Assembly: GCA_002104905.1 (NCBI GenBank)
Contig: MCFE01000066.1
Span: 62,001-126,000 of the forward strand
DNA length: 64,000 nucleotides
From: Basidiobolus meristosporus CBS 931.73
Taxonomy: Eukaryota; Basidiobolomycota; Basidiobolomycetes; Basidiobolales; Basidiobolaceae
Reading direction: 5' to 3'
This document shows positions 10,393-14,473 of the stretch, piece by piece; position 1 is the first letter of the stretch; each line of letters opens with the position of its first letter. Under the pieces are notes generated by a model. The model worked only from the letters and a program-made list of their open reading frames with translations. It was not told the DNA's origin and ran no database searches. A program made the translations under genes and the position numbers.

Positions 10393-11950
10393 CACACATG
10401 CTCTTGAGACCTTCCTGACCCTGTTCTATATGTCTTTAGCTACATTTACCTCAATGTTAGGAACAAATTGCTAATTCAAAGGTCAAGAGCAGAAACTGCC
10501 AAGAATGCCTGAAAGGCATTCAACAGTATGTCCCAGTTGTGTTCAGGTACTGAGAGAATGTATCCTAGATAAATATACTCTCTACTAGCATGCTGACCAA
10601 AAATGAAATGAAAATTTAATATCAGAGTTATTTAGCTGGTTGCTGAAAGTGGAATCTATGGGCATACCTGCTACTGATGAAGGTGTGATAGGTGCCATCC
10701 TGAATAGCTTGACAAAGCAATCTCAGAGCCATGTTTGAGACCCAGTGTCCAGATTTAAAGATTTGGCCTTCATTGTCTATACAGAAGGTTTTAAGAAAGT
10801 CAAGTGCCAATGATTAGAAAAAAGAAAAATCTTTAACACATGATGATGAATAATAAAGGAGTTACTCAGTACCCTATAAAGCAACAGCAACCTGTTTAGC
10901 AGCTACTGCACAAGCAAGGGACACACATCAGACTGATGCCTCAAAAGGGATACAATCAGCAGATAATACCTGAGTATGGAAATGTTGAAGAAGCTGAGAG
11001 CAGACTATTTATGTCTGCACCAAATATGGCTACATAAAAGGACCCTTAAATATGATGTATATACCCTGGACTGTTGCAAAACTTGACAAACCAAAAGAAT
11101 CTTTTCTCTAATTATCAAGAAATTACATTTAAAAAGGTTTTCATGGAAAAGGATAGAGCAATTGATGCAGTTAAAGTAAGAACCATTGTAGTGCACCTGG
11201 GAAACAGAGCAGGAAGCTACACACTTACCTTCAAAGAAGTACTGCAGGTACCAGAAATAGCTAAGAACCTACTATCTGTATATAGAGCCGCATACAAAGT
11301 ACTTAATTAAAGTTCTGATGATTCTGGATGCAGGACTACTGTTAAGGATGTTGCTCATTTTTCTTTGGATTTTAGAGATCAAAATCTGCATAGGTAGACT
11401 TTATATTTCATCATATCTGGAAGCTAATATAACTAACTCAACTAACTCAAATGAGGAAACATTAGTTCTTTGGCACAGGCAATTTATGCACATCAATTTG
11501 GGCTTTTTGTACTAAATTATCAAGGATCAGTTTGTTTACCAATCAAAAGTTAACACCCAGCAAAGAGCCTCCATTTATGAGAAACAAACCAGAAAACAAT
11601 TTACAAGCTTTAGGGTAATCAAAGCTAGGAAGAAGCCTAATCTAACTCACTAAAATCTGTCTGATTCTATGTAGCATTGATCCTTAGGCAAGATGAAGTA
11701 TTGGATCACTTTTGTTGGCAAGTACACAAAATGCATGTTGGTCGACTTCCCAGAAAAAAAGGTAGAAGCTCTCTCTAAGCTTAGGAAGCTCAAAGTTATG
11801 GTGAAAAAAGAAACTGGTAAAAATTAAGAAAATATGTTCCAAAAAAGGTGGAGAATATATTGCAATACCCAGCATCTACACGCCAACATGATTAGTGACA
11901 CATCTGCTTGTTTTAGATGCAGATTTATAACCTAATTTAATACTTTCTTA
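10393..11950 (+). pseudogene. second-family copia gag-integrase fragment
   Basis: This stretch differs from C1-C4 but has copia order. The gag-like plus-strand segment near 10620-10800 has WLLKVESMGIPATDE and then VIGAILNSL. A protease/pre-integrase segment follows at 11060-11290, with FKEVLQVPEIAKNLLSVYRA; this matches DVLYVPGIAKNLLSVSKA of C1 and defines the class. Near 11460 LVLWHRQFMHIN corresponds to the WHRRLGHIG pre-integrase motif. Sequence around 11690-11780 (KMKYWITFVGKYTKCMLV) fits the start of the integrase core. Reverse transcriptase is absent. It is heavily decayed, and the right boundary near 11950 is approximate. Confidence 0.7.
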
Positions 11951-11959
11951 AAGCATCTC

Positions 11960-13240
11960 TCCCATCACTCATATCTATGCACATTATGAAAATTAACCTT
12001 TAGTCTGACCAACAAACTACCTAACTTGCCAACTGCTGTCTCAAAAAATATTGGGCTATCTACAACTCCATACTTGTTCCTCACACCGGTGGTGATACTC
12101 ACATAACATGCAGTAATTACTTTGCATGACAATATGAACACATAGGTATTTGAGCTTAAATTATCATGTTATGTTTACAAAAGGCTTAGAGACTATAATC
12201 AACAACATGTATTGCTCATGTGGCATCAATAACACCATTCATATTGAAACCAAATGTCCACAATGTAAAGCAAATCTTTTTTGTAGTTATTTTGTCACAA
12301 CAGATTGGTTTATTTACGCAGTCCCACCTTCAATTCTCCTCAAGACTCCAGCATAGAAATATCCTTGGAAAAAATTGTTCTGCCCCGCAAAAGAATTAAA
12401 ACTTGAAAATAATTCCCCATAACCAGTTACATTTTTAAATACATTCTCATCCCACCTACACAAACTTGCTCCTCACAATAGTCAGAGTATATGTCCAATT
12501 TATCTACCAAATGTATGCAGTTAGTAAACTATGCCAAAAAAGGCAAAGTTTATGACAATTATCATGCTTACGCAAATATTGTTGGCACTAAACATACAGA
12601 GAGTATGTCAATACTCCTGTCTGGAAAAGTCATTGCTGGTGGCATTATGTCTGGAATATATACAGAAAGATCTGCCTGTAGTGTTATTATCAGAGATCCA
12701 TGTCTTGATTTTAGCAAAATACAATTCCCAGAAGATATTACTGAAAGCATTGGAATTTCTATTTGATTTCACAAACATAAATTAATATCCTTCTCCAACC
12801 ACAAAAAAAATTAAACTTGACAACAAAGTTTTGGTCAACAACCTAAACTTAATATGTGTCAGCTGCACTTACAAGGAATTAATGTTGGATGATAGCAAAG
12901 CCCTTATAAACTGCAACCTTCTCTTAAAAACACTTCTGTTCTAGGATCTAAAGCTAAATACAACAGGATGACATAAGACTGTATCTATTAATTAACTTGA
13001 AACCCCACCTTTAACGTCAGTTTTGACAGTAATATAATGAGTATACTAGCTGTTCACAGTACAGAACACAAATCCAACCTGTTATTCAAAGTAACAAAGA
13101 TGAAATCACCTCCACACACTCAGGATAAAATTACAGGAGCATATTTCATGACTTTAATCAATGAGCCAGTTGCTCCTGATATTTCTACTGACTTCTTTCT
13201 ACTTTGCAAGCAAGATACATTTGTAAAAAGTATATACCTT
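11960..13240 (+). pseudogene. decayed RNA polymerase largest-subunit-like fragment (RPB1/RPC1/beta'-type)
   Basis: Translated pieces in two or three frames match, in order, the N-terminal half of the largest subunit of multisubunit RNA polymerases. A degenerate GH-x-GHI-like clamp segment (~12110-12170) leads into YHVMFTKGLETI. A CxC...CPQC metal-binding-like stretch lies at 12209-12275. DWFIYAVPP (~12300-12330) resembles the conserved DW...VPP. SGKVIAGGIMSG followed by ERSACSVIIRDPCLDF (12620-12715) resembles the GK-x-G-x-RGNL-x-GKR...SARTVI-x-DP block. QQPKLNMCQLHLQG (12834-12880) resembles NRQP-LHK. NPTFNVSFDSNIMS (13001-13042) sits where the catalytic NADFDGD loop belongs, with only the first Asp kept. 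ITGAYFMT and KQDTF follow. Spacing along about 300 residues agrees with RPB1. Frameshifts, stops and the lost Asp residues make it non-functional. The source (host paralogue, linear plasmid or large DNA virus) is undecided. Confidence 0.68.
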
Positions 13241-13242
13241 AT

Positions 13243-14237
13243 GCTGGTAGAGTACTTGTTTAATGAGAATCCATCAAGTGCTAAAGCAAAGGCGTGGTCA
13301 TACATACCTTCAAGGTAGCCCTTGCTTCTTAGCTGTTTGTAATGTTTGCCATTATATATATTGGATATGATTGCACTTGATTGATACTGAGTGCGGTACT
13401 GTATAGCTTTGTAATATTTGTTGGACTGCATCAGCTTCCTCAGTTGGGGTATAACCTGAATACATCCAGAGTGTGAATATCACTTTCCCTTAACAGTGGT
13501 GGATTCCTAACAATTTGGACACGTTGTAAGGATAGCATTTTGGATGTGAATGCCATGCAACTGCTAACGCATGCTGGAATCAGGACAGTCTCTGGATCAT
13601 ATGTTGCCAGCTGCATGATGGTTGTCCACTTGTACCATGTACATGGTAAGTTGCATCCTGGTATGATTTTGGCAAGAGGTAATAATTAATCCTCAAAGCC
13701 CCTGTTACTGATATTAGTGGAAATGCACAACTTCTCTAGCCTCAACATTATATCATTCACCAGTAGATGGATTACTGGACCCACTTGGCTCCATAAAGTA
13801 TCCTTGGCATTTGTTTCAATGGGTGTTGTCTCATTGCATATAGGGATTTGACCGGGCTTATACGTGGTACTGTTGTTGGGGGAGATAGGTTTAAAATCAA
13901 TCAGTGAACCTTCTTTGTCAGAGCTATCACTCTGCATGCTATATTCAGAAGGCTGAGGTGAGCCTAAAGGTATCACAAACTCACCTGACTCAGTTTGCGC
14001 AAGGTGACAAAGACAGCCAGGTGCCAATGTAGAAGTATCAACTGGCTGACAAGATAATGTTGGTACAGTAGTGACCAATGAATGGTCAATTATGACTTGG
14101 GTGGTAAAACACTGGCTGTGATCCTTGTAATACTTCCTATGCTGTCTGCATGCTTCATGGCTGAGAGGCTTGCCACAATAGCCACATGGTCTTTTTTCTC
14201 TTCTCTTAAGGTGTTGAGTCAAAGTAGTCTTGTCCAT
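13243..14237 (-). pseudogene. Tnp2-type transposase, N-terminal half (copy T2)
   Basis: This copy retains the best-preserved N-terminus. The ATG at 14237 opens a 183-codon frame down to 13686 (MDKTTLTQH...). A basic Cys/His-rich finger (CGYCGKPLSHEACRQHRKYYKDH) spans residues ~18-40, followed by an acidic Ser/Pro linker and a WSQVGPVIHLLVNDIM segment near residue 155. After a frame break the gene continues with the SNKYYKAIQYRTQYQ block (13431-13300) and MYDHAFALALDGFSLNKYSTS, and stops abruptly at ~13243, where the polymerase-like relic begins. The C-terminal half is missing. Confidence 0.85.
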
Positions 14238-14473
14238 GGGGGAAACAGTTTGACCCTCAACTACATAATGCTATTATATCACCTTTTGGTCAATACTCAT
14301 GTGAACTTAAGACAGTCTTGTATTTAGTACATTGCACCTACATGAGTGTAAGATTCAATAATGACCCACCATAGTACGCATTATAAACAAAGTTGTGGCA
14401 CCACATACCCATGTATATGTAACACTAATCCCCTTTGGTTTGACTCAATGACATATACATGCTTCCAAAAAAT
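14238..14473. promoter_or_regulatory. divergent intergenic region of Tnp2 copy T2
   Basis: This is the region between the transposase start (minus) and the first codons of the divergent accessory gene (plus; ATG near 14459). It holds a TATA-like ATTATAAACAAAG near 14380 and is alignable with the regions at 18226, 35432, 47058 and 62064. The accessory gene is cut after a few codons by the gypsy LTR at 14474. Confidence 0.55.

What the first reader, a model, noticed from the sequence alone, without database searches (positions are those of the whole stretch)
11960..13240. Fossil of an RNA polymerase largest subunit among transposons
Five ordered blocks match the N-terminal half of an RPB1/beta'-type polymerase subunit at roughly correct spacing: VPP, the GK-x-G...SARTVI-x-DP type block, NRQP-like, the NADFDGD loop position and the GAY/DTF region. 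The metal-binding loop is degenerate (FDSN), and frameshifts are frequent. Wording of the blocks is far from ordinary fungal Pol II (for example ERSACSVIIRDPCLDF). Established knowledge: such genes occur in all cellular life, in some linear plasmids and in large DNA viruses, and relics of the last have been reported in fungal genomes. That this one is foreign is only my inference.
Basis: partly seen in the sequence, partly recalled or inferred. Interest (0 to 1): 0.88.

Follow-up and report, generated by a model that had tools for sequence, protein, structure and literature searches.

The report
Viral polymerase fossil in a fungus
A decayed piece of a large DNA virus's RNA-making enzyme lies among jumping genes in the fungus Basidiobolus, and the family it came from appears to make that enzyme's biggest part as two separate proteins, much as many archaea do.

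Summary
Window 11886-13251 is DNA-homologous (77.8% over 1380 bp) to a better-preserved locus of the same genome (C367), which encodes an RPB1-type subunit beside an RPB5 homologue and a primase-like gene. The host is Basidiobolus meristosporus (source names). The window copy is dead: several frames and in-frame stops, changes spread evenly over codon positions.

The closest relative found outside Basidiobolus is a 17-kb IMG/VR contig (36.8% identity, E 2e-77) with the same RPB1 start, a homologous primase-like neighbour, PolB, helicase, UDG and TFIIS. A tree joins the two at 100/99; Basidiobolus plus host Pol II is rejected (p-AU 2e-5).

Beyond the finding: the RPB1 frame stops just after the bridge helix in both C367 and the free contig. 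The rest, with the trigger loop, is a separate gene of about 358 codons in Basidiobolus. I found no report of such a split in a eukaryotic virus. Membership of Nucleocytoviricota is neither shown nor excluded; no capsid gene was found.

The parts
11886..13251 (+). Whole stretch of viral-derived DNA, homologous to C367:75580-74203
   Evidence: blastn 77.8% over 1380 bp
11886..11935 (+). Probable last codons of the primase-like gene that precedes RPB1 at C367 (end approximate)
   Evidence: Coordinates only: the DNA match starts at C367 75580 and the primase-like ORF ends about 75534; inference
11986..13237 (+). Relic of the 5' two thirds of the A' (RPB1 N-terminal) gene, aa 1-422 of P0002, in three frames, with in-frame stops
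12482..12763 (+). Longest conserved open piece, 94 codons, 62% aa / 79.9% nt identical to C367
13001..13240 (+). Second open piece with the degenerate metal-binding loop (FDSN) and the GAY/DTF region, 63% aa identical to C367
11056..11307 (+). Left neighbour: retrotransposon Pol beta-barrel domain piece
   Evidence: Pfam Pol_BBD E 2.5e-12
13376..14261 (.). Right neighbour: repeat also present near the C575 copy, 75% nt

Best explanation
The stretch is a decayed fragment of a large DNA virus genome that entered the Basidiobolus nuclear genome and was then broken up by retrotransposons and neutral mutation. It is the 5' two thirds of the gene for the N-terminal half (A') of the viral RNA polymerase's largest subunit. 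In the parent virus the largest subunit is inferred to be two polypeptides. A' carries the zinc-binding N-terminal region, the metal-binding loop and the bridge helix. A'' carries the trigger loop and the C-terminal part. They would assemble without a covalent link, as archaeal Rpo1N and Rpo1C do, together with an RPB5-type subunit, and transcribe viral genes independently of host Pol II. Shown: homology, a relative catalogued as viral, two separate genes, decay of the window copy. Inferred: assembly of A' with A'', activity, and infection of the fungus.
For: Homology to an Rpb1-domain gene. Free relative with the same RPB1 start (36.8% over 438 aligned positions, E 2.4e-77; the next best of the other 10 sequences compared was E 5.7e-35) and a homologous primase-like neighbour (35%, E 7e-42). 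Further shared genes: PolB with an 884-aa open frame at C1116 (45% over aa 4-797), helicase (46% at C1212, 42% at C1116), UDG-like (32%, E 3e-17), ORF227 (39% over 51 aa, E 2e-9). Tree support 100/99; host grouping rejected. Split: the L065 A' frame (629 aa) and the C367 frame end within 7 alignment columns of each other; A'' is a separate protein in 5 of 5 database hits and its best NCBIfam model is archaeal A'' (TIGR02389). Nuclear insertion: C367 also has ORFs that read by eye as ordinary cellular proteins, and retroelements around the C367, C574 and C575 blocks match those of the window.
Against: No NCLDV capsid match in the genome (a search in which no positive control rang). A'' and RPB5 are not on the 17-kb contig, so A' and A'' have not been seen in one viral genome; in B. 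meristosporus they lie on different contigs. Candidates were limited to 0.55-1.75 times the query length, so fused relatives would not have been listed. Viral branches in the tree are long and the program warns of it. Some Rpb1-domain matches lie under Pfam's cut-off (domain 3 in C367; domains 1 and 5 in L065). The contig's viral label is IMG/VR's. The viral RPB2 and capping enzyme were not identified in the fungus.
Confidence: 0.85

Rival explanations
1. A decayed duplicate of the host's own Pol I, II or III largest subunit.
For: The genome does hold two similar Pol II-type largest-subunit genes (C425, C679) and a damaged Rpb2-like copy (C683), so polymerase gene duplicates occur.
Against: Host pieces score 30.7-42.5 bits against P0002 where C367 scores 755. 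Basidiobolus plus host Pol II is rejected, p-AU 2.1e-5. Neighbouring genes have relatives on the virus contig.
Confidence: 0.02
2. Relic of a linear or other plasmid with its own RNA polymerase rather than of a virus.
For: Fungal linear plasmids carry RNA polymerase genes (recalled). No capsid gene was found in the genome, and I recognised none among the free contig's ORFs.
Against: RPB5, a primase-like gene, UDG, TFIIS, PolB, a capping-enzyme-like ORF and a large helicase look like a large-virus set; the relative was catalogued as viral by IMG/VR.
Confidence: 0.08
3. The split is an artefact: A' frames end by mutation, and A'' is the tail of a once continuous gene displaced by rearrangement.
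For: The copies in B. meristosporus are insertions of varying damage, and A'' has not been seen beside A' in one virus genome.
Against: The free contig has the same end point, and its next gene starts about 40 bases on. A'' proteins of 358-359 aa start at the same residue in 3 of 5 hits, and the other 2 have N-terminal extensions of about 30 and 15 residues. The C754 copy of A'' also begins at residue 1 (what lies upstream could not be fetched).
Confidence: 0.13
4. Contaminating virus sequence assembled with the fungus.
For: C1116 begins inside a helicase and goes on with PolB; it may be a virus-derived contig, and its cellular flanks were not seen.
Against: The window, C367 and C575 copies are embedded in contigs with shared retrotransposons; the window and C575 copies carry stops and broken frames, C367 one stop.
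Confidence: 0.02

Closest known systems
IMG/VR contig IMGVR_UViG_3300046454_001203 (17,169 bp)
   Same: RPB1 A' of the same layout and end, homologous primase-like neighbour, and PolB, helicase, UDG and ORF227 relatives in Basidiobolus
   Different: 37% identity only; a free contig, not an insertion; A'' and RPB5 not on it
1.5-Mb endogenous Asfarviridae-like region of Rhizophagus irregularis (PMC10640383; abstract, Introduction, MCP section and Discussion read)
   Same: Large DNA virus genes in a fungal genome; PolB and the large and small RNA polymerase subunits used as markers; no MCP found
   Different: One long recent region there; here short, scattered, partly old fragments. Relation to Asfarviridae was not tested
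NCLDV-derived DNA polymerase genes in basal fungi (Gong, Zhang and Han 2020; not held; known from the Introduction of PMC10640383 and recall)
   Same: Endogenous genes of large DNA viruses in early-diverging fungi
   Different: Whether Basidiobolus was in that survey could not be checked
Archaeal RNA polymerase Rpo1N/Rpo1C (A'/A'')
   Same: Largest subunit in two genes, cut between bridge helix and trigger loop; the viral halves score best against the A' and A'' models among NCBIfam families, below the curated cut-offs
   Different: Archaeal A' runs on some residues past the viral end (by eye); the tree does not place the viral A' inside the archaea; some archaeal loci have a continuous gene (for example L087, L094, L096, L107, L114, L143: 1258-1305 aa)
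Baculovirus-type polymerases with a short beta'-like LEF-9 (recalled, not tested)
   Same: Reduced beta' in a eukaryotic DNA virus
   Different: No comparison was made here

Membership tests
Multisubunit RNA polymerase largest subunit (RPB1/beta') | Rpb1 domains 2-5 in order | tested here: met
   C367 frames: domains 2, 4 and the start of 5 over the cut-off, domain 3 just under it; P0009: rest of domain 5, E 3.9e-20. Window pieces alone: not met
Multisubunit RNA polymerase largest subunit (RPB1/beta') | Intact NADFDGD metal loop | tested here: inconclusive
   Present in P0002 and L065; altered in C367 and in the window copy
Archaeal-style split A'/A'' | Two separate genes cut between bridge helix and trigger loop | tested here: met
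Archaeal-style split A'/A'' | Both halves from one genome, assembling into one enzyme | not tested
   Both are present in B. meristosporus but on different contigs; A'' absent from the free contig; assembly needs the bench
Nucleocytoviricota | NCLDV major capsid protein | tested here: inconclusive
   No match to PF04451 at E 0.1 in the genome; no positive control rang
Nucleocytoviricota | PolB, RNA polymerase subunits, TFIIS, D6/D11-type helicase | tested here: met
   the helicase subtype is recalled, Pfam gives generic helicase domains; these genes are not exclusive to the phylum
Nucleocytoviricota | RPB1 groups with other nucleocytoviruses | tested here: inconclusive
   One clade with the 10 other viral rows is not rejected (p-AU 0.062) but not recovered; those rows (7 IMG/VR loci, 3 database proteins) were taken as nucleocytovirus-like by eye
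Host Pol II largest subunit | Groups with host RPB1 | tested here: not met
   p-AU 2.1e-5
Archaeo-eukaryotic primase (for the neighbouring gene) | Sequence profile match | tested here: not met
   No Pfam, NCBIfam or PDB-sequence match, only chance-level PHROGs and Pfam rows. The word primase-like rests on motifs seen by eye
Archaeo-eukaryotic primase (for the neighbouring gene) | Fold match | not tested
   Two models were too poor to search (mean pLDDT 43 and 41)

The most novel reading that the evidence does not exclude
A deep, still largely unseen lineage of fungus-infecting large DNA viruses, distinct from the sampled nucleocytoviruses, that kept or acquired an archaeal-type two-piece largest polymerase subunit, and that has entered Basidiobolus genomes more than once.
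Probability: 0.25. Interest if true: 0.92.

Novelty: new variant of a known kind. Interest (0 to 1): 0.72.

Why it matters
As of 2023 no double-stranded DNA virus of fungi had been identified directly, though indirect signs existed (PMC10640383, Introduction read). This adds a second kind of fossil and names a free contig that may be a living relative. A largest polymerase subunit made as two genes in a eukaryotic virus, cut close to the archaeal break point, bears on how often and why that break arises between the bridge helix and the trigger loop, the two moving parts of the active site.

Tried and rejected
Window ORF pieces alone against Pfam and PDB sequences: no useful hit. Viral-contig scans (8 of 8 used): P0002, P0013 and alignment A2 found no relative; alignment A1 found two loci that read as phage; the motif pattern found 17; the L055 RPB1 returned its own contig and 14 contigs already known; alignment A5 and PolB returned only the same contig. 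PF00562 search: 15 matches on 10 contigs; the one fetched (C683) reads by eye as a fungal Rpb2 copy, so the viral RPB2 is not identified. Capping enzyme of the free contig: the only match in the genome is E 0.005. RPB5: the only match in the genome is the C367 gene itself. Two structure models of the primase-like protein were poor and no fold search was run. RIP-like decay: not seen, C>T 46 and G>A 34 against T>C 42 and A>G 36, with C367 as the reference. Literature: 10 of 10 searches used; Basidiobolus with giant virus or Nucleocytovir: 0 papers each; Basidiobolus with dsDNA virus: 1 unrelated paper, listing seen only. PMC9501531, PMC12198294 and PMC11814242: found passages only. I first thought the window copy older than the split of the B. 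meristosporus and B. ranarum elements because of its low protein identity; the codon-position counts and small tree speak against that.

Full report
What is there. The window lies in an 89-Mb assembly (G000, contig C935). Database names for proteins identical to ORFs of its contigs give the host as Basidiobolus meristosporus CBS 931.73. The DNA match to the same genome's C367 locus runs from 11886 to 13251 at 77.8%. It is far beyond chance.

State of the copy. The three pieces lie in three frames and hold 6, 1 and 11 in-frame stops. Between the window and C367, differences fall evenly on the three codon positions: 20, 16, 20 over 93 codons and 12, 19, 19 over 79 codons. That pattern fits mostly neutral decay after integration. 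The C575, C936 and C980 copies are 94-96% identical to C367 over the codons compared; the C768 piece is 70% identical with more changes at third positions (16, 12, 27; p 0.037), which may mean a separate, functional past. In a small tree the window piece groups with C367, C575 and C936 (97/93), apart from B. ranarum, but its branch is long and the alignment short.

The better-preserved relatives. At C367 two frames separated by one in-frame stop hit Pfam Rpb1 domains 2, 4 and the start of 5 over the cut-off, and domain 3 just under it. Next to them, on the same strand, lie an RPB5 C-terminal homologue (E 8.6e-10) and a primase-like gene (named from motifs by eye; no profile match). C367 also has ORFs that read by eye as an ABC transporter and kinases, and retroelements flank the block, so it sits in a fungal contig. 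In B. ranarum the primase-like gene and RPB1 have consecutive locus tags and the same 3498-bp contig length.

Not a host polymerase copy. The tree of 31 rows and 868 columns joins Basidiobolus with the viral contig L065 at 100/99. Its rows are two from Basidiobolus, L065, 10 others taken as nucleocytovirus-like (7 IMG/VR loci and 3 database proteins, judged by eye), two host Pol II-type genes, and 16 archaea that I chose from the 80 loci listed. The window pieces themselves were not in it. A clade of Basidiobolus plus host is rejected (p-AU 2.1e-5); one clade with the other viral rows is not (p-AU 0.062). Host Pol I and III genes were not held. The program warns of long branches, so the deep placement is open.

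The free relative. A degenerate search for the metal-loop motif found 17 viral contigs. Of the 11 sequences from them that I compared, one contig (L055, L065) stood out: 36.8% identity to P0002, E 2.4e-77, with the next at E 5.7e-35. By Pfam it carries PolB and helicase domains, a UDG and a TFIIS zinc ribbon; a capping-enzyme-like ORF is called from sub-threshold matches and by eye. Its PolB finds an 884-aa open frame without stops at C1116 in B. meristosporus (45% over residues 4-797) among 29 matches, which include broken pieces on other contigs and probably host DNA polymerase genes (C578, C538). Its helicase finds C1212, the start of C1116 and other places (7 matches). Its UDG and ORF227 have relatives in the C574 block, though that UDG-like ORF has no Pfam match itself. 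A primase-like gene adjoins RPB1 in both (35%, E 7e-42), downstream in the free contig and upstream at C367.

The split. In L065 the RPB1 frame is 629 residues and stops just after the bridge helix; the next gene starts about 40 bases on. The C367 frame stops 7 alignment columns later. The missing remainder is a separate 360-codon frame on contig C574, matching Rpb1 domain 5 from position 68 on (E 3.9e-20). Five of five database relatives are separate proteins of 324-389 residues, including a B. ranarum protein named Rpoa2p; that search only considered proteins of similar length. A second genomic piece at C754 also begins at residue 1. Of the 17 loci, I set aside 6 as phage types by eye and L055 itself; of the remaining 10, 9 read on past this point and 1 is cut short by the end of the stretch held. 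Four of these ten look like near copies of one another. Among NCBIfam models the two halves score best against archaeal A' and A'', below the curated cut-offs. In the archaeal loci most A' frames end some 400-450 residues after the metal loop against 279 here, and several archaeal loci have one continuous gene. So the viral break is near the archaeal one, not shown to be the same event.

How it most likely works. Inference from archaeal and Pol II structures (recalled): A' and A'' pack together so that the bridge helix and trigger loop meet at the active site, with RPB5 at the downstream jaw. The window copy does nothing of the kind; it is a relic.

What is known. Large DNA virus genes in fungi are reported (PMC10640383, sections read). 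I found no paper that joins Basidiobolus with giant viruses or Nucleocytoviricota, and no report of a split largest subunit in a eukaryotic virus (of one search's 52 papers only 20 were listed and none of those was read for this beyond passages of PMC11814242). Phrase searches of an open-licence library can miss such papers.

Noticed in passing
G000 contig C1116:1-4359: Helicase end followed by an uninterrupted viral-type PolB frame of 884 aa; whether it is an insertion or a virus-derived contig is unknown.
   Followed up: partly
G000 C757:118493-159515, C127:6079-6808, C1248:20901-21521: Repeated broken PolB pieces with the same numbers of stops on different contigs in part, which suggests duplication after decay.
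   Followed up: no
G000 C425 and C679: Two closely similar Pol II-type largest-subunit genes (1634- and 1460-aa open frames) in the host.
   Followed up: no
L042 (C683:4100-7100): Damaged copy of an Rpb2-like gene that reads as fungal Pol II by eye.
   Followed up: partly
L047 and L043 (C574 about 13.0-20.4 kb): Block of several unassigned ORFs (302, 168, 218, 160 aa) beside A'', between retroelements; none reaches a Pfam cut-off.
   Followed up: partly
L005:5582-5923: ORF with a small cysteine-rich motif on the far side of RPB5; no significant family match.
   Followed up: no
L055:9502-12936: 1145-codon ORF of the free contig with a D-mannose-binding lectin match (E 6.3e-8), perhaps a surface protein.
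   Followed up: no
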